A DNA stretch of 64,000 bases from Antedon mediterranea (Eukaryota > Echinodermata > Crinoidea > Comatulida > Antedonidae): assembly GCF_964355755.1 (NCBI RefSeq), contig NC_092679.1:13320932-13384931 (forward strand), written 5' to 3'. Every line of letters starts with the position of its first letter. Position 1 is the first letter of the stretch. The notes under the pieces were generated by a model. That model had not been told where the DNA came from. It did not search any database and saw only the letters and a program-made list of their open reading frames with translations. Positions 15,901 to 60,900 of the stretch are shown one piece after another. The translations under genes and the position numbers were made by a program.

Positions 15901-18900
15901 TATGGTCCCACATTATCACCTCTGTCGTTTGTTTATCAAATTACGTACTGTACGTTTCATCGCTTTTTTAGCGCGTTGTTGCCGCGTGATTTGTAACTTC
16001 GACTTATACGATATAAATCACTAAAGAATGTGTGTATTCGGACCGCAAAAAGACGTCGACTTAGATGAATTTAGACTTAGAAAAATTTGACTTACAAATC
16101 AAAATTACACAGTAATGTATAGGAAAGAATTGGGACTTCCGCAATTTTTTGACTTACACAAATTCGACTTAGGCGGAGTCGACTGTACAATACAATACTA
16201 CTGATCTACTGCATTTTTTGCTTGTGAAGACCGTTCAGTTCAGAATCGACAAGATTGGGAACTTGTGTTATGCATACATGTTGGTCAGTTGTTTGTCCTA
16301 CAGTACAGTACTCTAACATAATTTTCTACTTTATATTATTTAAGTATAAACACAATTTCTCAACTCCCTGACACACAAAAGCTACTCCATAGTTAGCTAA
16401 ATACATTATTATTATTATTATTACTGTAGTGTAACTTGTTGGTATACCCGCTTACTTAAGCTATAATCCAACCCCAGCCATCAGCACAAGCTCAGTGTTC
16501 TAGAGGTACACGAAAGCCAGGCTACAGTAGTATTAAGTAGTGAGTGGTTATTTTTGTTTTCTAATGCCAATGGTCTTCATGCACACACTAAAGTTTGGGC
16601 ATTTCCTTCTGTACAAGGTACCTTCTCAGTAAATGTTAAATGTTAATGTATGGTCCTCAAGCTTAACTGGAAACTGAGGAAATTCAGATTAGGCCCTCCA
16701 CGGACCCACGGCAGCCAGCGCCTACCAGATCAGTACAACGGGAGACGATTTCCTACTCTTTTCAAATAGTGTACCAAGTTCTTTAACGTGCAGTTAAGTA
16801 CACGGGACCAACGGCTTTACATCCCATCCGAAGGATGAGGCAATAAGAGTAAAGCATCTTGCCTTTAGGATGCAATTAGTACAGGTATGGTACAGATAAC
16901 CTCGAGCCCACGCCTATCAAAGTCCAATATTATCATTACACCATCACTCTCTGGTGTACTGTATCAGTAGCCGCTATTTCTAGACGGTCTCCCATCCAGA
17001 ACGTAACCAGGCCCAACATTGCTTAACTTCAGTGATCTGATGAGAACCGGTGTTTCAACGCAGTATGGACATATAATACTATACAGATATTGACTGCTTA
17101 GAGGTTAAATATAAGATTTGACATCCCCGAGGGAATGATATTAAGTTCGAGGGAATATATATTTCCCGAAGCGCCAGCTGAGGGAAATATATATTCCCCT
17201 CGAACTTAATATCATTCCCGAGGGGATGTCAAATCTTATATTTAACCGATATAAAAGGCAATATCTGTTATATTATATAGCCAAGAACAAGTCTGCTGGG
17301 TTGGGTGAAGCTAGGCTAGGCCTCCTATAGTATTTGTATTGTATTTAAACAAGCCTGCCTAGACACCTTACTGTACCTTGCGAAGAATAATATACAGATA
17401 ATTACTAATTAATGATTCCTTGGCAACAAAATATTCACTTAGGCCTAGGTCGTTTAAACTAACAGAAGAATTTCCATCAATAAGCCTATTAAAAATAATA
17501 ATATTATAATCAGGTAGGCCGAATAAACAATTCGTCTTCTTCTCGATCTTCGAGGAGCTGAATCACCGGATGTTCAGCGCGTACTAGTTACTAGGTTACT
17601 ACCGTGAGTATTGACCAATCACAAACGGTGTTTCATCACATTTAGGGTGAACTTATAACAAATGAGGGCGCTATGTATGCATAGTTTAAATAGTTTAGAA
17701 GATTAATTTCTTCAAGCAACTTCCGTGGCGCAACGGTTGAAGCGTTGTCTTGCGATGGAGTGACAATTCCACCCGAGTTCAAGATCGAGTTGATGACTTT
17801 TGTTTATTTATCGGCAACGCGAGTGTTGGCACACGAAAATTACACAGTCAATATCATCGTACTCGAGAATCTATATGTTTAATGACAGGAGACACGATAA
17901 TTACGCGAAAATTACACAGTCAATATCATCGTTCTCGAGAATATATATGATTTACGATCCTCGCAGCGGTAGTCATGTGATGCAGTTTCAACCAATCACG
18001 TTAGCGTATTTACATAGGCTATGTAATATTGTATAATATGGCAGTATTTATAATATATCTTTGATGACAGAACTTAAAATATGGTAATGCTATTTTCAGG
18101 GTTCGTACACCTGTGAGCTAGTAAAATTCCAGGACATTTCAAGGACATTCAATGTCAACATTTTAAAATTTCAAGGACATTATTATACCTAAATATTAAG
18201 TTCAACAGATTAATAAAAAAAAAATGAATTCGTAGTTACGATGTTTTTCAGAAATTCAAGTACTAACTGTAGCCACTAAAAAAACATACAGTACTGAAAA
18301 CATAGGCGTGGGAAATCGAGTAAAATGACACGTAACGGTAGTAAAGCGTAAAGAGTTGTAACAACTCCCTGGTAAAGCCTTTGTGGAACCGCGCCAGACT
18401 TCCGCGCCTATCGAGGGTAGTCACGGCGTGTATTGAACAAAGGCTGATGTTTCCATAGTCACTGCACTGTCGACGATATTTGGTAATTTGATACTACTAT
18501 AGGATGACGTTCTACAATTCGTTCGGAATTCGGAGTTTAAATGCCGTTTCTGTATATCGTATGTTTTTTTTAGAAGGTATAAATAAAAGAAATCAAACCA
18601 TATTCTAATTCACTCTGAACTTTATTCAAAACGATCTTTACGATTTTTACATTGTTTATTTTTTACAACTTAGCAATTTCTGCTAATTTAATCTACACAA
18701 TAGCCTAGCTATTTTTGATTTCCTCTAATTTATGTCTAATGTCTTCCTCTAGTTGAGCTAATTGCTCTTTTTTTTCAGAAGCGGTTCTACGCAAGCTATT
18801 AGCTTTGGCAATGAGGGTAAGACTACCTTTACTTTCAGCTTGATCGGAAAACTTTGCAGACGATTTTTCTAAACCCATAATATCAGCAATACATCTTTTT

Positions 18901-21900
18901 TTGGCTTTCTTTAAGTTATCTAACTCATCGATCGTCGATTTTCTCTTAATAGCCTTTGAAGATTCTGCCGCTTTACGTTTTTCATTATCAAGATGGAGAT
19001 TATAGCATTGCCTAGCCCCACTCACAGAAGTAATTAATTGGGGCGTTATCTTTACAGACAAAACACCACCAACTGAAGCTATGTGACCGCATACAACGCG
19101 CTTCGAAACATATGTACTCTCTGACATATTGACAGCCGCTACCTCCTTGTTTACACTAAAACCTCTCTCAACAGTCGCCTGGCCATGGGAAAGCATTAGA
19201 ATCAATTTTACTACCCCCCAGAATGCGTGATACTTAGTGGTTTTGCTAAGGCGGTCATAGTAAAATTCGTCAATTCTACATTTAGGATCGTATTCAGTGA
19301 AATCTGATAAATTATTTAACACAACAAAATCATAGAATTCGTTTGCCTGATTAACAATTTCATCACACATGTCATGGTTGATTTTTTGGTTGTCTGCTAA
19401 TATTTTTAATACAGCCTTTAGTCTACCAACATTAAGAGATCGCGCATTACCACTTAAACAAAAATTTCTTGGATCGAGAAATTTCGCTTTTTGAACGATT
19501 CTGAAACCAAGTGGGCATTTAGATAGCACTTTCTTAACACTTGCACTCATTTTTAAACCTGAGTTCTTGTAACTCGGACACCTTCTTTTTCTTGATCAAC
19601 TCCTTTATATGCTCTGAAGCTAATATTCCACAGTCTACTTTGTTAGCAAGTAAATGGTTTTTCGTTTCATCTATATTAAAGTTAGTGAAACTTTGGCCAT
19701 TCACGAGCCCGGAAAGGACGTCTGGTTTAATGACCAATCTCAATAGCCCTCTCAAACATGCCACTAGATCTTTCTCAAGAAACGGTATCATTGGTTGATC
19801 TGTTTGATATTTTTTAAGAAACGTTTCCATTTGTGTGGCCACCATCACAAAAAAGTGCATTCTGGGCACCGTAAATAAGTCTACTGAAGCAGCCTTCAGA
19901 GTGTCATACGACTTTGTTTTTGGGTCATTTATTTTCTTTTCGGTCACCTGCTTGATGTACGTTTTAAGGTGCGGAAAAACACTGAGAAACCGCTTCGCAA
20001 CTGCAGCATTCTCCACCCATCTGTGTTTACAAAACTTAAGGCCAAACACATGTGTGCCAGTAGCGTTCTCAAAATCTTCCCGACGAGCAGGGGTGTCTTT
20101 GAACAGTATTTGTAAACTAGACAGTATGTCGTAGACCTTCCAATCAATTGACTGCACACCACTTTGAAACCCATTGTGCATTACATGAAGGCCACACGAC
20201 CCAATGTTGAGAACTGATGTATTGTAATTCGTCTTTATATCGGCAGAGAGAAGTTTATAAAACTTCCAATTGACGTTTGGACCATCCATACCGATTTGAA
20301 GTAATTTTGCGAGATTTAGTTTGTCTGCACATATCTTAAAATCGGTGACGACTTTCTCAGCAGTAGCATGACCCATGAATGTACTATCAAAGAATCTAGT
20401 TTCCACGTGGTTGTTAGCCCAAAATCGGACATGGATATCCATTTGCTTTAGTTGTGTACCTTTGTTTAGACTTTCATCAAATAGTAGAACGTAATCTGAC
20501 TCATCCGTAACACGTTTCAGAAGTAATGACCTAAAATGAACAAAACTTAGACTAAAAACATTTGTTTTTCATACTCACCAGGCTATTACTCAATACAGAA
20601 ATGCCTATTACAATTATTTATTTAATCTAAATTGTAGGCCTATATCAATCGATATCAAACAAAACTTACCTAAAATATGGCGCTAAATAATTAACAACAT
20701 AAGCAGACTTTTTTTCACCACAACTAAATTTTGCAGCTATTCCACTATCTGGAAACATCGCCTGGAATACTTCATTTATTTCATCCATCGACTTGTTCGA
20801 ATAGTGCCGGTTAGTCATGAATAAGGCCCACAATATTTCTGCTTTACGAATCTCCTCACTACTACTGAAATACTGCATCGTCGCCGGGCCACTTGGGTTC
20901 GTACGTTTCGGTATACTATTATCAACACTAGTTCCTGGTATGTCTTGTTGTTCAATAATACTGGTGATGGTACTATTAGATTTACTGGTGGATGTTGTTG
21001 GGTTGGACTTACTAAAAAATTGATTAACTTCTTGCGTCGTATTGTTAAACCTCAACTCCATTTGTTGTTTATGCTTTTTTCCGTTTTGATGAGATATTAA
21101 CGCCGACCGTCCCATGTTGGAGATATCTAATGTTTTTCTACATAGTTTACACTTTGCCTCCGTTTTTATTGACGCACGGTTAATCCACGGGGAAAATTTG
21201 CTATCAAAAAGCCAGGACTCTTGAAAAAAGCATGTACGCGGCATGTTGGATAGATTTCCACTGACGAGAAACGCACGATAAAAAACTCATCGGCAGCCAT
21301 ATAGAGACCGCTAATATACGCGCTTGCGGTGTGAGAGAGCCTCGCTGAGAGAGGTCACTATACTCGCATTCTATTTATAGCTTATCAGAGGCTATAAATA
21401 GAATGCGAGTATAGTCACTAATTAAAGTGTAATGCTAAAATGCTATGCATGTTTACAATATTACATTCGTTAAATTAATTTTTAAACAAAATCGGAACAC
21501 AAAAAGGGCCAAGTATTTATTTCAATAGTAATAGCTATTATGCAATAATGTACTGTGGGGGAACAAAAGAATAGTTGGGCAAAGTTTTTTCAAGGTGATT
21601 GTCATCTGAACATCACTGGCCAGTGGCGTTCTGCAGTCAACAACCAACCTGATAAGAAAGCCTATTTCATGTACGAGCATTTATCGGCGGCGGAAAAGTC
21701 GGCACGTACAAACGTTGTTATCTTCCATGTACTTTCATACTTAATACTTTTATTGTTCAGTGTTTTCAAAACTTTATTAAAAAGAATTCATATAACTTTA
21801 TTGTATTTTAACAATTTTCAGGACATTCAAGGACAAATGCCAATTTCAAGGACTTTCCAGTACTTGAAAAAAGAGATTTATTTTTCCATGACTTTCAAGG

Positions 21901-24875: not shown

Positions 24876-27785
24876 TATGACATTTCGTTATAATATCCAC
24901 GAACAAGGCAATGCTCAAAATAGCAAAATATTCTTTTACACAATCATTATCGTAATCTCCAGACTTTAGCTCTTAAGTTCCTCAACCCTGGAATAATTGG
25001 ATTAGGTTCCATACAGTTTGTACAATTCAGCCAAAACAATGACGCTGCATTTAGTAGGCCTAGTAGAAATGGCAAAAATGACACCTCCTTGGAATCATTT
25101 ACATGATGGTGCAATGTTTGTATTCCTTTTTATTTTATGACAATCAAAAATATTGACAATGACTTAACATTAACAATACAACAATCAATGATTAAAAAGT
25201 GTCAAATAAATGCACTTTCAGTTAAATATGCAACTTTTCTTGACACATCAAGTACAACTTTAAATAAAGGTTATCTCCAGAATTACATTATAGTGCAGAC
25301 ATTAGTTAGGCCTAGGCTAGGCCCAAAAACTCGGACCTTCCTCTATGTACACCCACTATTACACCACCACCAGGATACGAGAGAGATGATGCCAGTGAGT
25401 GGCGTTTGCCAGGTTCTTCGCAGCAGCAGCGAGATAGATAAATGAGATCACCATTGAACTCTATTGAAACGATTTAATAGTTGGACAACGCCAGAATAAC
25501 TAATATTTAAGTGTCAAAATACATATCTGTGTTAGAATGTTGCAATAATCAATTTAAATTCCACAGGCCTACACTCTCATACACTGCGTAGAGGGAGAAA
25601 TTGAGGAAGCAGCAAGATGGAGTACAGTACTATCCCATGATGCAACGGAAAAGAGGGCGTATAAAAATTGTTTTTCCCTTGTTTTTTATACACATTCCAA
25701 TGATAACAGGTTACCTTTTGAAACATGAATAATATCATTATCTTTATAAATTAGCATTTTTTCCTTTTAAAACATTTAAATTTTTCAGGCCTGGATCTTC
25801 TAACTCATGTTGGCTAATTAGGCCTATAATTCAATAATTAACATGGAGTTACTCTTTTAAAATTGTAATTTAAATCCGTACTGTGCACATGATATTATTT
25901 CAAGAGAAGTGTTAACTTTATATATAACAATTTTAACATGTAATTATTAAAATATTTAAAATACAATAACAAAAACAAAGTAACTGTTTAGGCATATATG
26001 CCTACATCTCAGCAATTTCCAATCTTTTCTAAACGTGAGATAATTGTGTATGACGTTTGGCCATAGCGTAACGGGATTTGTCCGAGTCCCTTCTCTCTCT
26101 CCACTGTAGGCTTAAGTTTTGATTGTTGTCTCAGGTTTCACTTACCTTTATTTCATATTTTTCTTACATACTCATTTTGAATAAATAAATATTTGCAATC
26201 AATCAGTTCTTATTTCTTTTATTTTGCTTTTGCATACAGTAGTCTATATAATAGACCTTCATTATTTATTTTTTTTAACTGGTGGTCACGACTTAAAGTT
26301 GTCCGCAACTTATTTTGACCTCCATCCGCACATTTTTTATGTTTTTCTTGTTTATTGTAATTTTCTTTTTGCAATTTGTAATTTTTATCTTTTATTTTAA
26401 AATGTGTGGAGAAACTAATAAAACAAACAAACAAACAAATAAACACCAGCAAACAAGTTCTGAACTTCCCGGGTGATATTATTATGAAAATTATTATAAT
26501 AATAATTCTATAGGGGCCTATAGGCCTAAACACCACACGCACGTACAAAACAAATTCTAAACCACCCGGTGATAACAAATATATATTTCTTTTTAAAGGT
26601 TCCATTTGTCTTACAGATGTAGATCAATAGGCCTAAATATAAATTAAATACAATTATCATTAAAAAAAAATTTTTTATTGGAAACCAACAACTAGCTTTT
26701 TACACCATTAGTTGTACATTGTATTTATTAACTTTTTTTTATGTTTGCACTATTTTAGTTTATTTGCATATCATCTTCACATTTTAAAAAATAAATAAAA
26801 TTATTAAATTAAATTAATTAAATCAGCATTAATAAAATACATTCATAGAATGTATAAGAATACTCTTATTCGCGCCGCGGCTTTAGCAGCTATTTCCCAG
26901 AGGACATAAGCATTCAGAAACAGTTACCATATACGCGAAGCTTTTACTCTACAGCCGACAGAAATGAGAATGTTTATTAAACTCGACTCATCACACTTAC
27001 AATTGTTTTAACCTTTTCTTTTATCTTTCTTAAATAAATAACAATAAGAAGATAATACATTTGATCATTGTCGTAAAAAACTACTTAATATACTTTACTG
27101 TTACTTAGCTAATAATAAGTTTAGGCTACCGTAGGCCTTTTATTATGCTCGAACAATGTAGGCCCTACTTAGCTATCCGGAATGATATCATGATTTTCCA
27201 TTATAATCAGTTGTAATTAAAACACTATACATTTTATACATATGTTGTCTATTACGACAATCGTTTCATTTTAGAATCAAAATTACAGATGGTGGTACGT
27301 ATAAACGACTGGATCATGAATGACGCATCAATCGAGCCAATACGCTTTGCTCCATTTTCATACTTCATAATTGAGTATGATCATGGAGGCATGAAATTAT
27401 TCTAAATTTACAATTTATGGACTTTCCACGATAGACAGTTAGGCCTTAAAATAGAATGCGGATATTTTAGAGTCAACGCCTATGCTATCCGCATTAAATA
27501 ATATCTTGTGTCTATTTGCTTTTACTATACGGACCAGTTTTCAGGAACCAAATTAGTACGACTACATATCATTTGAGTTCTCTACACGGTAAGATTATTT
27601 ATGACATGAGTTTATAAGTCAACAAATATCAAGGTATTTCACTGAAGACTTTGAAGATATGTAATGTTTAAAATGTAATTATATTTAATCAACCAGTCGA
27701 TCAGGATTACGACGTTCCGATGTTAACGGGAATATATACAAATTCATTGGCACTCTCGTCACGAAGACAACATTCTCTTTCTTAT
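24876..27785. other. Intergenic region between SOS and the IFIT-like gene
   Basis: The 5' ends of SOS (minus strand) and the IFIT-like gene (plus strand) face away from each other across about 3 kb. The SOS-proximal part up to about 25660 has more CpG and G/C and may hold the SOS promoter and 5' UTR. From about 25900 to 27780 it is AT-rich. I see no coding exon. Confidence 0.5.
25612..25655 (-). promoter_or_regulatory. Possible SOS promoter element cluster
   Basis: The stretch contains AGCAAGATGGAG (YY1-like AAGATGG) and ACTATCCCATGATGCA, which resembles the ZNF143/SBS promoter motif ACTACA.TTCCCAGAATGC. Both are typical near animal housekeeping start sites. It lies about 750 bases upstream of the SOS start codon. 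The match is by eye and imperfect. Confidence 0.25.
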
Positions 27786-27868
27786 CCAATCAGCATGCTG
27801 ACTGGATTCTTTCACAAACGAAACTTCCTTCCGCCAATCGTATAAAAGCCTACTTGTTCCGAAAGCGA
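27786..27868 (+). promoter_or_regulatory. Core promoter of the IFIT-like gene (CCAAT, IRF-like site, TATA)
   Basis: In order: CCAAT at 27786-27790, ACAAACGAAACT at 27814-27825, a second CCAAT at 27834-27838, and TATAAAAG at 27841-27848. ACAAACGAAACT matches the second half of the interferon-stimulated response element (GAAANNGAAACT) exactly but has mismatches in the first half. A further GAAAGCGA lies at 27861-27868. Transcription would start near 27870. Confidence 0.55.
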
Positions 27869-27869
27869 C

Positions 27870-28012
27870 ATTTGACAAACTCGCAATCCTGTTTATCTTG
27901 AAAAAAAATGAGTTAGGCCTAGGTCGTCAAGATAATAATCAAAGTCAAATCTCAAAATGTTCAAATTGGTCCGATCGAGCTGAAACTTGGAGAAAACAAT
28001 CTTGAGGACAGG
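27870..28012 (+). other. Non-coding first exon of the IFIT-like gene (predicted)
   Basis: The predicted exon runs from about 30 bases after the TATA box to a strong donor (ACAGG before GTGAGT at 28013). The matching acceptor is the pyrimidine-rich TTTGTGTTTCTCTCTGCAG ending at 28319. A segment around 27961-27989 is partly repeated at 28083-28110 inside the intron (CCGATCGAGCTGAAACTT / CCGATTGAGCTGAAACTC). Confidence 0.5.
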
Positions 28013-28344
28013 GTGAGTATAAATCCGATATCAAGGAGAACACCATAAAAGGTCATGCGATGTACAGATAAAGGTAACATTTCAAAATTGCTCCGATTGA
28101 GCTGAAACTCTTGATCAATAGTATAATTCATGGAGTGTTGAAAGTGTAGGGTCTATTGAATATAAGTATCTCTAGTTCTTTTTCTTTATTTATATTTTCT
28201 ACATGGCATGGTAGGCTAGTTCATTAACATAGAATATATCATCCTTTGACTTTACATTTACATGAAAACAAATGTATGCGATTCCACTGTTACTTATTAT
28301 TTGTGTTTCTCTCTGCAGTGTGGCCGCCTTATCATCGAAAAACC

Positions 28345-30387
28345 ATGGCACAGTTAGAGATTGAGCTGCGTGAATTTCCATGCCATTTCATTTGGAAGCT
28401 TGAACAAAAATCTATAAAGCAATTTCGATCATTGATGGATTCGATTAATGACTATATCAACGAGTGTCCTGCTATGAAAATTGAGAGTTTACTGTTCAAA
28501 TGTTATATTTTCTATTCAGATTTTAAAGGAAATATAGACAAAAATAAAACTGATGCAATAACGTGCATTAATGAAGTGCGTAGAATTTTGCAAGATGATT
28601 TAAGTGAACAACCTTTTAAAGATGGATACTTGGCAATAGCCCTTGCTATCGAAGCTTGGCTCAACCGTCACAACAGAACAAAACTGGCCTCCAATATCAC
28701 AGAACTGCGAAGACTTGACTCAAAATATGAAATCGACTCGAGTGAGCGTAATAAGTTTACAGCAAGTATATGTTCAACAAAAGGATTTGCCCTGTCACGT
28801 GTAGGTATGATTCGATATCCTGATAGTATTAAAGAGCTTAAGAAAGCAGTAGACTTGTGCCCAGAGGTTGTCGATTGGCAGTTTTGCCTTGGTAAAATGA
28901 TATGGAGAATCGGTAAAGCATCTTCTAGGCGACATGTAACAAATAAGGACATTTTAGAAGCCGATCGCATTTTTCATAAGGTTGTAAGTGAGGATCGAAA
29001 TAATAGCTACGCACTTGCCATAATGGGAGAAATAAAGCGAAGGAGGGGTGCAATTGAGGATGCAGAAACCCTATTAAAGCGCGCTCTCGGAGATCCCATG
29101 CAAACCAACACAAAAGTTCTTGGTGAGGTGGCACAGTGTTACCGAAGAATGAAAAAGCATTCCAAATCATTGGAAGTTTTACACGTCGCTGTTAAACGAA
29201 AACCAACTTCTTTCATATTTCACCAACTCCATTGTGTGTACAGAGATATGCGCCAACAACAACCACCCGAAGATTATCTTCAAAAGGCAATTGATATGAA
29301 TCCATCTAATATGGGTGCTCAGTGTGATCGCGCTAAACAATTTTTTTCGAGAAATGAGTATGACAAAGGACGAGCATACTATGAATGGATACTAGATAAT
29401 AACCAAAATGACCCTGAAATAACAATTGAAACCACTTACATGTATGGAATGTCTCTAGGTAACATTCAACATTTTGAAGATTCAGTTGAGAAATTTGTAA
29501 TGGTTGTAGATAAAGCTCTTGAACTAAAATTGGACGATGATCCACCTCTTTTCCCTCATGAAATTAAATGGATGGTAGATGTAGCTGCCGAGCGAGTCAG
29601 AACATTTTATAAACGTAACCTAAATGAAAAGGAATCTCTTTTAAAGTTGGCAGAGTTAGAGATAAAACTTGGCAATTCAAAAGAAGCCTGTGAACACTAT
29701 AGACATCTTTTGATAATACTAACACAAGATAATGAAGATACGAGTGATCTTGAATGGAAATGTCTTGAATACTTAGCCGAAATAAGCACTAAACATAGGA
29801 AGATGGATGACGTCGATACCATCGTGAATAAAATGGAAGAGCTGAATCTTTCGAATTCAAAACCTGAAATACTGGATAAGTGCAAGGAAGCACTAGCGCT
29901 TGAGAGAGGCAGGGTTGCTTTAGCTGATGGTAGAAACAGTGATGCTCATAAACTGCTTATTGAATCGGTAGAATTTGGTAATATAACAGGAGCAAAAATT
30001 CTTCTTGGTGAAGTCAAAGAGATGGACAGAGGAAACAGAATCTTCTACATAAGTTGTGCCCACATTGATATTTGTACTGATCGAAGTCAAGATAACAACA
30101 ATGAATTAAGAGCTGATCTTGAGTCAGTGCTTTCAGATGATACTTCAACAGTAGGAATTGCTTTGAAAGACTTACGAGACACACAATATAGAATGGAGCG
30201 TAATATTCTGCAAAAAAGTTCACAAGTTGCAACATTAACGAAAGACGTAATTCACAAATGCCGAACTATTCTTAATGAGACAATGGTGACATTTAAAAAT
30301 CGCCACTATTCAAACAAAAAGACATCTTGTGACTACCAGAACCTATATGATTGTCCTTCAGAGGATGTAGAAGCCAACCTAAAATAA
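28345..30387 (+). CDS. IFIT-like tetratricopeptide repeat protein
   Basis: IFIT proteins are cytoplasmic helical TPR proteins; vertebrate members bind viral or non-self 5' RNA ends and block translation. I choose the ATG at 28345: it has an ideal context (ACCATGG), lies just after a strong splice acceptor at 28319, and starts MAQLEIELREFPCHFIWKL, which resembles the N-terminal L..L.CHFTW.L motif of IFITs. The frame is open 99 bases further upstream, but that part is intron. The 680-residue product has TPR-like helix pairs, for example KGFALSRVGMIRYPDSIKEL, ADRIFHKVVSEDRNNSYALA, AETLLKRAL and ASEVLHVAV-like KSLEVLHVAVKRKPTSF. It is about 200 residues longer than mammalian IFITs; the extra length is C-terminal. 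The gene has one long coding exon after a short 5' exon, the same plan as vertebrate IFIT genes. Whether it is antiviral here is inference from the family. Confidence 0.8.
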   Translation: MAQLEIELREFPCHFIWKLEQKSIKQFRSLMDSINDYINECPAMKIESLLFKCYIFYSDFKGNIDKNKTDAITCINEVRRILQDDLSEQPFKDGYLAIALAIEAWLNRHNRTKLASNITELRRLDSKYEIDSSERNKFTASICSTKGFALSRVGMIRYPDSIKELKKAVDLCPEVVDWQFCLGKMIWRIGKASSRRHVTNKDILEADRIFHKVVSEDRNNSYALAIMGEIKRRRGAIEDAETLLKRALGDPMQTNTKVLGEVAQCYRRMKKHSKSLEVLHVAVKRKPTSFIFHQLHCVYRDMRQQQPPEDYLQKAIDMNPSNMGAQCDRAKQFFSRNEYDKGRAYYEWILDNNQNDPEITIETTYMYGMSLGNIQHFEDSVEKFVMVVDKALELKLDDDPPLFPHEIKWMVDVAAERVRTFYKRNLNEKESLLKLAELEIKLGNSKEACEHYRHLLIILTQDNEDTSDLEWKCLEYLAEISTKHRKMDDVDTIVNKMEELNLSNSKPEILDKCKEALALERGRVALADGRNSDAHKLLIESVEFGNITGAKILLGEVKEMDRGNRIFYISCAHIDICTDRSQDNNNELRADLESVLSDDTSTVGIALKDLRDTQYRMERNILQKSSQVATLTKDVIHKCRTILNETMVTFKNRHYSNKKTSCDYQNLYDCPSEDVEANLK

Positions 30388-57900: not shown

Positions 57901-60900
57901 GATTAAAAATTTGAAAAAGTTTAGCATTTCATTTATTTTTCAGGACATGGGGTACCACCAAATTCATGGATCTGCCAATGTAAGTAGAAAGTAACTTATT
58001 TTGCGCGAGAAAGTTATTTTGTCAATAATACGTTTGCCAACTCTAGTATAATTGTACCAAAAAATGAAAACCTTCTCTGTCCACGTTGTCTTCCAGCACG
58101 CAATTATATTGTGCTCCCTAATTTGTTATCTTACCAAGAAAGCTTGCTGATTTTCTGGTTGATTCATGTCAAAGTCATCATCGTAAATAGTATTTCCATA
58201 GCACTCATATGCGGTGAAGGAACACACACTAAGATCAACTGTTTCTAATCCAAACACAATTTGAAGTTCAACATTATCGTCACCCTCAATGCTATCCTTG
58301 AAGCGAGTTCTTCTGTCAGTATGTATGGCAACATTATGACTATCGGGAAATACTTGTACCTGTAAAAATCAAGATGGTAACCTCATTGTAGGCCTAAAAG
58401 CTTCCTCTTTTAACTTAAGTCTTCTGCAAACTTGCTTTCTGCAGTTTGCCGAAGTTTGACAAATGGGTACACTATAGCAAACTTTAACAAATATTAATAA
58501 TAATAAACGTTCGATTTTCCCCAAGTAAAAATGTTGCATGTTTAATTGATAGTCAAAAATAAATCTGAAATAATCACTCATCAAATGTATAGATTTATAT
58601 CATTGGTAATACATACATATATCATTTTTAAAATAGACCAATATAAATATTGGCCTAATTAACATACAATAAAATAAATTCCGGTGACTCTTATTTTGTT
58701 TGTGATAGATTTAACCTAGGCCTACTGTTCAAACTGTATCATGTATTATTCGTAATGCCATTTTGCATATGATTACAAAAATGATGATGGTTGCCTAGAT
58801 ACACTAGGAGAATCGTACGCAAATTTAGCTGAGAGACAATCAAAACAAAGTTGAATACTTACGTCTCGTTCTTGAGATTCAATTGTTGAAATCTTGTAGC
58901 CTAAAAATGCTGTCACACCCAGTAACACTACAACAATTACCCAACGGAATATCTTGTGTGTCACAGCCCTAAAGAATGGTCCAGCGAAGAAACGAACAAT
59001 TACATTGGCACGCTTTTCAGTTTCGTCCTCCTCTGGGTAGCAGCAATCGCAGCAGCAACACCTGCAGTCTTTCCACATCGTGTGATGCGTCATGAGAACC
59101 GTCGGGAAATATGTAATTACAGACAGATAATTGCTTACGATCATCAATGAAGAGAACACTCCAAATGAGGAAGTAGCAAAAAACGGAGAGAAATAATTTA
59201 CGAAGAAAGCAGCAGCTGTTGTTAACGAAGTGACGAACATTGCCAGTGCCGCTCGACGATACGTATCCGAAAGACGATGTGCCAGAGATGGATACGACAA
59301 CAGTGCTGTTGCACGCCATGTGTCTACAAATATAAACACGTCGTCTGCTCCTATTCCAAGTAAAATGAAAATAGCCAGTACATGAAATATACCAAAAAAT
59401 TCGTATCCGATTACCACACGATAAATCAAATTCGCGAAAAGAAATGACGTGATTATACTGAAAACTGAAAGACCAGTTATCCACCAAGACCGAGTTTGAA
59501 CGTAAATAAATACAAAAATAAAAACGAAACTGCCAACAATTAAAGTGAGATCACGATAGACAGTGGAATTTATTATCTCTTCAAATATTGAAAGAGACAG
59601 GTAGGTTATTTCTATACCATTGCCAAAGCCATTCTCAAATTTGTCATGCAAGAAGTCAATTAACTGATCTCTTATAAAGTTATCAATTTCTTCAATTGGT
59701 TGTTCGTCAAACGGCAGCCCTTCTGTAGTGTTATCAAGTGGCGTTCCAAAGTCAATAAGTAAACGTGTTTGCTCAGAAGTTGCTTCATCTATCGTAACCA
59801 CCGCCTTTTCTGCCAGGAAAAACTGTAACACTTCGTCTAATTCAGGCTGAAGTGTAGCATTGTATAAAATGGCGGGAATGTTATCAAATTCTGGATCATA
59901 AAACTCTTCTCCATATGTCCCATCAAAAAACCTTAACACAGAAAGCGGTGGTACACAACTACCTGCTTCGTTTAACTTACAATATTTATCAAAATCTGGT
60001 TTTGCTACTGTTTCTTCTTCAAAACGTTTAATTCTAGCAAGGTTACTTTTTGTGAAAACATTTCCATTTTCTAAAAATAAAATAACTTCTAAGCTATCGT
60101 ATTCTTCTCTTCGTATTCCATTGTTAATTGCCGTGTTCTCGAAACGGTTGATTCGTTCGAAATTAGCATCACGTCTGTCCCATGCTATTCCAAGTTTAAA
60201 TTGCTCCTCTCTTCGGATATCCAATGGCAGGTCCGTAAACTCGGCTGGGAAGATGTTGTAGTCAACATAGAACAGAAGTGCTGTAATAAGTAAAACGAGT
60301 ATGTGGAAACCTAAGGCAATACCTGTAAAAGAAAAAGAAAAGAAATGGCGTTAACAACAGTAAATCAATAACCAGATACAAATGTAATGTATCCATAATT
60401 ATTATCAGATGCAAGTTCTGTGATACAGACGTGCATTTCCTTATGTGTGTAGGTCCTATGTTTCACAAAATGTATCCAATTATTCCATCTTTCTTTAGTT
60501 CTTTTAAGATAACAGCTAATTTGTTTACTACTGTACTCATAATATTAAACATTTACGTTATAGAAAAATAGATATTATTTATCAATTCCGAGATCAATTC
60601 CCATACATATCAGTTTTCACCCTTGTCTGCAGCTGTTGTCACTAGGCAGATTATAACTGACTATCGCAAGTCATCTTGAAACAAGCTGTATGTTTCTAGA
60701 TGACTTGCGATAGTACGTCAGTTAGAATAAATCTGTCTAGTGAGATAGCTGCAGAATTGTATGCAGTTTTTATATCAATATCTATATTTACAAGTATTTA
60801 GTAAATAGCAATATTAATTGCATGTTTAAAATCATCTGTGCCACCTTTCTCTGTCTTTTCTATACTTAAAAGAGCATACTTCATATTTAGGCCTGAAATG

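What the first reader, a model, noticed from the sequence alone, without database searches (positions are those of the whole stretch)
27786..30387. IFIT-like gene with vertebrate-style architecture and an IRF-like promoter site in an apparent invertebrate
Seen: a CCAAT/TATA promoter, a 12-base site whose second half is the exact ISRE half-site GAAACT, a short non-coding exon and a single long TPR coding exon. Known: vertebrate IFIT genes are interferon-induced through ISREs next to the TATA box and have a short first exon plus one long coding exon. Invertebrates lack classical interferon but many deuterostomes have IRF genes. Inference: IRF control of IFIT-type RNA sensors could predate interferon. 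The first half of the site is mismatched, so this is a lead, not proof.
Basis: partly seen in the sequence, partly recalled or inferred. Interest (0 to 1): 0.72.

Follow-up and report, generated by a model that had tools for sequence, protein, structure and literature searches.

The report
Invertebrate IFIT-like gene, NF-kB-wired family

Summary
The described features are in the sequence: CCAAT, TATA, the 12-mer ACAAACGAAACT, a predicted short non-coding exon and one 680-codon TPR exon. The protein is an IFIT homologue: its best solved-structure match is IFIT5 (E 2.7e-11), and IFIT5 searched against the 354 Mb genome returns six matches, all from this family, window gene included.

The IRF reading fails its own test. 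In 14 family upstream regions, exact ISRE cores are at chance (4 of 14; simulated mean 2.57), and the 12-mer arises in 183 of 400 shuffles.

An unbiased count instead finds an exact NF-kB site, GGAAATTCC/GGAATTTCC, in 10 of 14 genes and all three clades (simulated mean 0.18), mostly 9-16 bp upstream of a TATA-like box. The window gene has CGAAACTTCC there, 12 bp from TATA, so its 'ISRE half-site' is better read as a diverged kB slot, though this copy remains ambiguous. A kB composite is shared with two tandem cGAS-like genes.

Best reading: an IFIT-type RNA-binding effector family induced directly by NF-kB. Expression and RNA binding were not tested.

The parts
27419..27427 (+). GGACTTTCC, a generic kB-type 9-mer about 410 bp upstream of TATA
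   Evidence: read; not tested for significance and not in the slot that the paralogues use
27786..27790 (+). CCAAT box, first copy
   Evidence: read
27814..27825 (+).
   Evidence: as good a match arises in 183 of 400 shuffles of the 300 nt, in 9 of 400 within the slot
27819..27828 (+). CGAAACTTCC, putative diverged kB slot (one mismatch to GGRRNTYYCC, two to the family form GGRAATTYCC), ending 12 nt before TATA
   Evidence: same slot holds exact kB sites in paralogues
27834..27838 (+). second CCAAT
   Evidence: read
27841..27847 (+). TATA box (TATAAAA)
27870..28012 (+). predicted non-coding exon 1 (5' end inferred from TATA)
   Evidence: donor GTGAGT at 28013; no transcript evidence
28013..28318 (+). 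predicted 306-nt intron in the 5' untranslated region
   Evidence: donor/acceptor signals
28319..30387 (+). predicted exon 2: 26 nt leader plus the whole coding sequence
   Evidence: acceptor TTTCTCTCTGCAG
28345..30387 (+). IFIT-like protein, 680 aa: residues 7-302 align with IFIT5 12-296, followed by a further TPR-like region

Best explanation
The window holds one intact member of a family of about 14 IFIT-like genes and disrupted copies, plus a fragment, in this genome. The protein is an IFIT-type helical TPR protein, extended at its C-terminus, that most likely captures foreign or non-self RNA in its N-terminal groove and blocks its use (inferred from homology).

Family transcription is most likely switched on directly by NF-kB (Rel). 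A 9-10 bp palindromic kB site sits 9-16 bp upstream of a TATA-like box in most members, so Rel would bind next to the basal transcription machinery without an interferon relay (inferred from conserved sequence). In the window gene this slot has diverged to CGAAACTTCC, which may still be a weak kB site or a kB/IRF hybrid.

Shown here: the homology, the conserved kB-TATA layout in paralogues, and the absence of ISRE enrichment. Inferred: binding by Rel, induction, RNA capture. The rivals below that concern only the window copy do not exclude this reading of the family.
For: IFIT identity: best PDB match is IFIT5 (3zgq; E 2.7e-11), above engineered TPR proteins. IFIT5 (285 residues) against the genome gives 6 matches at E<=0.1, all six in clade A of this family, E 3.2e-12 to 3.3e-5 over nearly the whole query, although one TPR model alone finds 77 matches in the genome.

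RNA pocket (residues from PMC9677429, passages): R186 is invariant in 10 of 10 aligned family rows and Q288 is kept in 9 of 10. K150 is R in 7 of 10. The window and four clade A rows also keep R260, F284 and H287; Y156 is kept in 8 of 10.

kB wiring: GGAAATTCC is the top 9-mer of 15,575 in 14 x 1.5 kb upstream (10 of 14 genes, all 3 clades). In up to 2.5 kb: 10 of 14 against a simulated mean of 0.18, 0 of 300 simulations. 10 sites in 21.0 kb of upstream against 1 in 60.5 kb of the rest of the window and 0 in 40.5 kb of the rest of the family loci. Spacing to a TATA-like box: 9 or 11 bp in five clade A genes and 15 bp in one gene each of clades B and C by script; 14-16 bp in three more by eye.

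The sites are letter-for-letter known human kB sites: GGAATTTCC (IL-8), GGGAAATTCC (IFN-beta, IP-10), GGGAATTTCC (MCP-1) (PMC9991059, passages).

A composite GGAAWTTCCNAYRTCAC has 14 matches genome-wide, reversed control 0; 4 are IFIT-like promoters and 2 are tandem cGAS-like genes. Rel-homology domains exist in the genome (NFAT not told apart). GAAACT also occurs inside the human RANTES kB site read on the other strand, GGAAACTCCC (PMC9440430, passage).
Against: The window gene itself lacks the exact kB site. Its slot is 2 mismatches from the family form and, in its better orientation, 2 from the consensus GGGRNWYYCC quoted in PMC9991059 (my count). It ranks 43rd of 63,992 positions in the window by a family matrix, and the ISRE-like match in the slot is also uncommon in shuffles (9 of 400). 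MAFFT places the slot one base off the paralogues' site. Two other members also lack the site (C2_3869, C7_15936), and C2_3840 has it without a clear TATA. In C2_15092 and C4_24261 the TATA-like box is weak (ATAAA, TTTAA).

Ten other genome-wide kB-TATA matches that I inspected (10 of 40) showed no recognisable immune gene (open frames read by eye, no family scan). Five composite matches lie in a tandem array without long open frames.

Several RNA contacts are not conserved: Q41 is Y/H, Y250 is K/H/A/R, R253 is G/S, Y254 and K257 are replaced, T37 is S/L, and the E33 metal ligand is R/G/K. The structure could not be predicted with confidence (mean pLDDT 42.0 and 41.5). With the family profile and with paralogue C2_15098, engineered TPR proteins score above IFIT5; C2_3840 has no PDB match at E<=0.01. 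No expression data.
Confidence: 0.62

Rival explanations
1. IRF control: the 12-mer is a weak ISRE that binds one of the genome's IRF proteins next to TATA, as in vertebrate IFIT promoters.
For: The site contains an exact AANNGAAA core and GAAACT next to TATA; the 12-mer match within the slot arises in only 9 of 400 shuffles. IRF domains are encoded at two loci. Two close paralogues carry IRF-like sequence about 220 bp upstream of TATA (GAAACCAAAACT with 1 mismatch in C2_15098; CCAAAAGAAACT with 2 in C2_15095).
Against: Exact ISRE cores in upstream regions are at chance (4 of 14, mean 2.57, 80 of 300 simulations reach it; the full GAAANNGAAACT 0 of 14). The 12-mer's first half is mismatched at two positions, and matches as good arise anywhere in the 300 nt in 183 of 400 shuffles.
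Confidence: 0.15
2. The slot in the window gene is neither: it is an ETS-type site (reverse strand GGAAGGAAGTTT) or drifted sequence, and this copy is constitutive while its paralogues are inducible.
For: On the reverse strand 27819-27833 contains two GGAA cores, one in the form AGGAAGT (ETS motif recalled, from no call; sequence read). The gene lacks both an exact kB of the family form and an exact ISRE.
Against: The slot keeps the position and most letters of the paralogues' kB site; such a kB-like match in the slot arises in 2 of 400 shuffles (chosen after the fact).
Confidence: 0.25
3. A generic TPR gene: similarity to IFIT only reflects shared TPR periodicity, and the kB sites reflect some other stress role.
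For: Pfam gives no IFIT-specific model; with the 10-row family profile and with C2_15098, engineered TPR proteins score above IFIT5; Liu et al. 2013 rejected invertebrate hits on these grounds (PMC3688568, passages).
Against: The reciprocal search returns only this family although the genome has many TPR genes; the alignment runs through the N-terminal CHFxWxL stretch and through R186 and Q288.
Confidence: 0.1

Closest known systems
Vertebrate IFIT genes (IFIT1, IFIT5)
   Same: N-terminal 300 residues align with IFIT5 including CHFxWxL, R186 and Q288; short first exon and one long coding exon (predicted); some members in tandem clusters; TATA promoter.
   Different: 680 aa in the window against 482 in the IFIT5 chain; ATG in exon 2; no ISRE enrichment; kB next to TATA in paralogues; several RNA-contact residues replaced.
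NF-kB-driven human antiviral and chemokine promoters (IFN-beta PRDII, IP-10, MCP-1, IL-8)
   Same: Identical kB letters in the paralogues, with a CRE-like element (label recalled) beside it in four clade A promoters.
   Different: Here the kB site is mostly 9-16 bp from TATA and the gene is a putative RNA-binding effector, not a cytokine; no IRF element is enriched.
cGAS-like (Mab-21) receptor genes
   Same: Two tandem cGAS-like/ubiquitin-like genes in this genome share the kB-CRE-like-TATA module.
   Different: Unrelated protein; shares only the promoter grammar.

Membership tests
IFIT family | Best and reciprocal sequence match to IFIT rather than to other TPR proteins | tested here: met
   IFIT5 is the top PDB match of the window protein; IFIT5 returns only this family in the genome (6 of 6 matches). 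Weaker for other members
IFIT family | TPR repeats along the protein | tested here: met
   15 Pfam models at E<=0.01: 12 TPR, 2 TT21 ARM-repeat, 1 other
IFIT family | IFIT clamp fold with RNA groove | tested here: inconclusive
   AlphaFold2 without relatives gave pLDDT 42.0 (whole) and 41.5 (residues 1-347): not interpretable
IFIT family | RNA 5'-end contact residues of IFIT5 | tested here: inconclusive
   R186 (10 of 10) and Q288 (9 of 10) kept; K150 is R in 7 of 10; Y156 8 of 10; R260, F284, H287 in the window and four clade A rows; Q41, Y250, R253, Y254, K257, E33 not
IFIT family | Two exons, first with ATG plus 2 nt (typical of mammals) | tested here: not met
   two predicted exons, but ATG lies in exon 2; feature from PMC3688568 (passages). 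Not universal in vertebrates either
IFIT family | ISREs in the proximal promoter | tested here: not met
   exact cores 4 of 14, chance mean 2.57; full ISRE 0 of 14. Some vertebrate IFITs lack it too
IFIT family | Induction by interferon or dsRNA | not testable with these tools
   no expression data; an interferon family search found nothing but had no positive control
NF-kB target genes | Consensus kB site in the proximal promoter | tested here: met
   10 of 14 family genes exact; the window gene itself only a near-match, so met for the family and not for this copy
NF-kB target genes | Rel binding and stimulus-dependent transcription | not testable with these tools
   Rel-homology domains are encoded; binding not tested

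The most novel reading that the evidence does not exclude
IFIT-type RNA-binding effectors predate interferon and were first wired directly to NF-kB through a kB-TATA core promoter shared with cGAS-like sensor genes; ISRE/IRF control was a later vertebrate rewiring. The window gene shows a plausible intermediate: a kB slot that has drifted into a GAAACT half-site readable by either factor.
Probability: 0.3. Interest if true: 0.78.

Novelty: new variant of a known kind. Interest (0 to 1): 0.6.

Why it matters
Liu et al. 2013 (PMC3688568, abstract and passages) placed the origin of IFIT genes in jawed vertebrates, together with interferon and the ISRE. A reciprocal IFIT match in an apparent invertebrate would move the protein family back, and the promoter evidence suggests that the effector came first and its control was swapped. 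That makes 'which came first, interferon-stimulated genes or interferon?' testable with a kB-site mutation in one gene family.

Tried and rejected
IRF/ISRE enrichment across the family: at chance, so rejected as the family's switch.

Structure: two AlphaFold2 jobs on window sequence alone gave uninterpretable models, so no fold search was run.

Profile search with the 10-row family alignment put engineered TPR proteins above IFIT5, as did C2_15098 alone. Reported as evidence against.

Is kB-TATA a general immune promoter? 40 matches to GGRAATTYCCN{8,18}TATAAA against 30 for the reversed control, so most are probably chance. Three tandem pairs were fetched: one is cGAS-like/ubiquitin; one lies on the opposite strand to a RING/B-box gene; one precedes kinase genes. 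Ten further single matches showed no clear immune gene.

TAGGCCTA is the top 8-mer, and its extension GTAGGCCTAC the top 10-mer, in the upstream regions, but TAGGCCTA occurs 46 times in the window, so it was rejected as a lead for this gene.

Species: 11 large chromosomes and 7 small scaffolds, 354 Mb. Two paper searches gave no name and no mitochondrial COX1 was found. A crinoid or other marine invertebrate is only a guess. STAT is present, as are three strong RIG-I-type C-terminal domain matches plus one weak.

Prior work on invertebrate IFIT promoters: the listings showed none in this open-access library (one search was badly framed: none of its 25 listed papers held the IFIT phrase). That does not show absence, and I recall that databases label some invertebrate proteins 'IFIT5-like'.

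Full report
What is there. The coordinates hold a complete predicted gene: CCAAT 27786-27790, the 12-mer ACAAACGAAACT 27814-27825, a second CCAAT 27834-27838, TATAAAA 27841-27847, a donor at 28013, an acceptor with exon 2 starting at 28319, ATG 28345 and stop ending 30387. The window lies in an unnamed 354 Mb genome with 11 large chromosomes and 7 small scaffolds. The species was not identified; IRF domains at two loci and STAT at one (lower bounds) fit an invertebrate better than a vertebrate.

The protein is IFIT-like. phmmer against solved structures puts IFIT5 first (E 2.7e-11, residues 7-302 on 12-296), ahead of engineered TPR proteins and IFIT1. The reverse test is stronger: the aligned 285 residues of IFIT5 searched against the whole genome gave 6 matches at E<=0.1 (11 candidates scored), and all six are members of this family, the window gene among them (E 1.2e-9). 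One TPR model finds 77 matches in the same genome, so this is not generic TPR similarity. Against: the 10-row family profile scores engineered TPR proteins above IFIT5, so does the close paralogue C2_15098, and the divergent C2_3840 has no match at E<=0.01.

RNA pocket. Using the contact residues tabulated in PMC9677429 (passages) and the alignment, in the 10 of 14 members that were aligned R186 is invariant (10 of 10) and Q288 kept in 9. K150 is R in 7 and M in 3, and Y156 is kept in 8. R260, F284 and H287 are kept in the window and the four clade A rows. Q41, Y250, R253, Y254, K257 and E33 are replaced, and T37 is S or L. The groove may bind RNA, but specificity for 5'-triphosphate cannot be assumed. 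Structure prediction without relatives failed (pLDDT 42.0 and 41.5).

The family. Searches with the window protein and with C2_3840 give clade A (window; three on C2 at 15.09 Mb; C4; a disrupted copy on C1), clade B (C2 at 3.81-3.87 Mb) and clade C (C7 at 15.93-15.97 Mb), including disrupted copies and a fragment. I took 14 upstream regions; the fragment at C2:3.830 Mb was left out. A loose scan without a control found a candidate splice acceptor 7-57 nt upstream of ATG in all 14, so an intron in the 5' leader may be family-wide. In mammals the first exon typically carries ATG plus two nucleotides (PMC3688568, passages); here it does not.

IRF test. In up to 2.5 kb upstream, GAAANNGAAA occurs in 4 of 14 genes (simulated mean 2.57; 80 of 300 simulations reach it), the full GAAANNGAAACT in 0 of 14, and GAAACT in 10 of 14 (mean 11.05). 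In the window promoter, a match as good as the 12-mer arises in 183 of 400 shuffles of 300 nt, though in only 9 of 400 within the slot 9-16 nt before TATA. IRF-like sequences about 220 bp upstream of TATA in C2_15095 and C2_15098 are noted.

NF-kB instead. Counting all 8-, 9- and 10-mers in 14 x 1.5 kb, the top 9-mer of 15,575 is GGAAATTCC (with its complement GGAATTTCC): 10 genes, all three clades; the top 8- and 10-mers are the genome-wide palindrome TAGGCCTA and its extension. With the 10-mer GGAAATTTCC counted too, 11 of 14. The simulated mean for the 9-mer in up to 2.5 kb is 0.18 genes, with 0 of 300 reaching 10. The rest of the window has 1 site in 60.5 kb and the rest of the family loci 0 in 40.5 kb. 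The genes are related, so counts are not independent; the conservative statement is that the element persists in three clades, the aligned members of B and C sharing only 25-30% identity with the window protein.

Spacing. By script, the first TATA-like box after the kB 9-mer is at 11 bp in four clade A genes (weak boxes in two), 9 bp in C1, and 15 bp in C2_3817 and C7_15949. For C2_3827, C2_3835 and C7_15963 the script named other boxes or none, and I read 16, 14 and 15 bp by eye. C2_3840 has no clear TATA. TCACG recurs within 30 nt upstream of the site in 6 of 11 genes and three clades; 12 of 2000 shuffles reached 5 for any 5-mer and none reached 6. The kB letters are exact human kB sites (IL-8, IFN-beta, IP-10, MCP-1; PMC9991059, passages).

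The window gene's slot. CGAAACTTCC (27819-27828) ends 12 bp before TATA, the place where paralogues carry kB. It is one mismatch from GGRRNTYYCC, two from GGRAATTYCC and, in its better orientation, two from GGGRNWYYCC (my count; consensus). GAAACT is not diagnostic of an ISRE: the human RANTES kB site read on the other strand is GGAAACTCCC (PMC9440430, passage). Whether Rel still binds here is open; my confidence concerns the family more than this copy.

A shared module. The composite GGAAWTTCCNAYRTCAC has 14 matches in the genome and none for the reversed pattern: 4 clade A IFIT-like promoters, 2 tandem cGAS-like genes followed by a ubiquitin-like exon (the second copy's ubiquitin-like exon was read by eye), 5 in one tandem array with no open frame over 120 codons, and 3 single places. 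The broader kB-TATA pattern is probably mostly chance (40 against 30 reversed), and 10 of its matches inspected showed no clear immune gene.

Conclusion. The likely mechanism is pathogen signal to Rel, Rel to a kB site beside TATA, then an IFIT-like RNA-binding effector, with no interferon relay. The homology, the conserved layout and the failure of the IRF test are shown; binding, induction and RNA capture are inferred. An interferon family search found nothing but had no positive control, so absence of interferon is not shown.

Noticed in passing
L027 (G000:C1:24228500-24238300), minus strand: Two tandem genes, each with a kB-TATA promoter and an upstream TGACGTCA, cGAS-like Mab-21 exons and a ubiquitin-like exon ending LRGGR: a possible cGAS-like/ubiquitin-like fusion (fusion not proven).
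   Followed up: partly
window 27931-28005 and 28056-28120: Imperfect repeat with GAGCTGAAACT, one copy in predicted exon 1 and one in the intron, giving two more GAAACT hexamers.
   Followed up: no
whole window: The palindrome TAGGCCTA occurs 46 times in 64 kb at 34% GC, where composition predicts about one by my arithmetic; also enriched in family upstream regions.
   Followed up: no
window 18705-21286, minus strand: Three neighbouring long open frames without Pfam match at E<=0.01; look like zinc-finger/hAT-type transposon-derived genes by eye.
   Followed up: no
window 58773-60350, minus strand: Exon of a Patched/sterol-sensing-domain protein (Pfam sterol-sensing E 8.3e-13).
   Followed up: no
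G000:C9:15097436-15113145 (L040, L041): Tandem array with five kB-CRE-like sites, mostly about 4.2 kb apart, and no open frame over 120 codons.
   Followed up: partly
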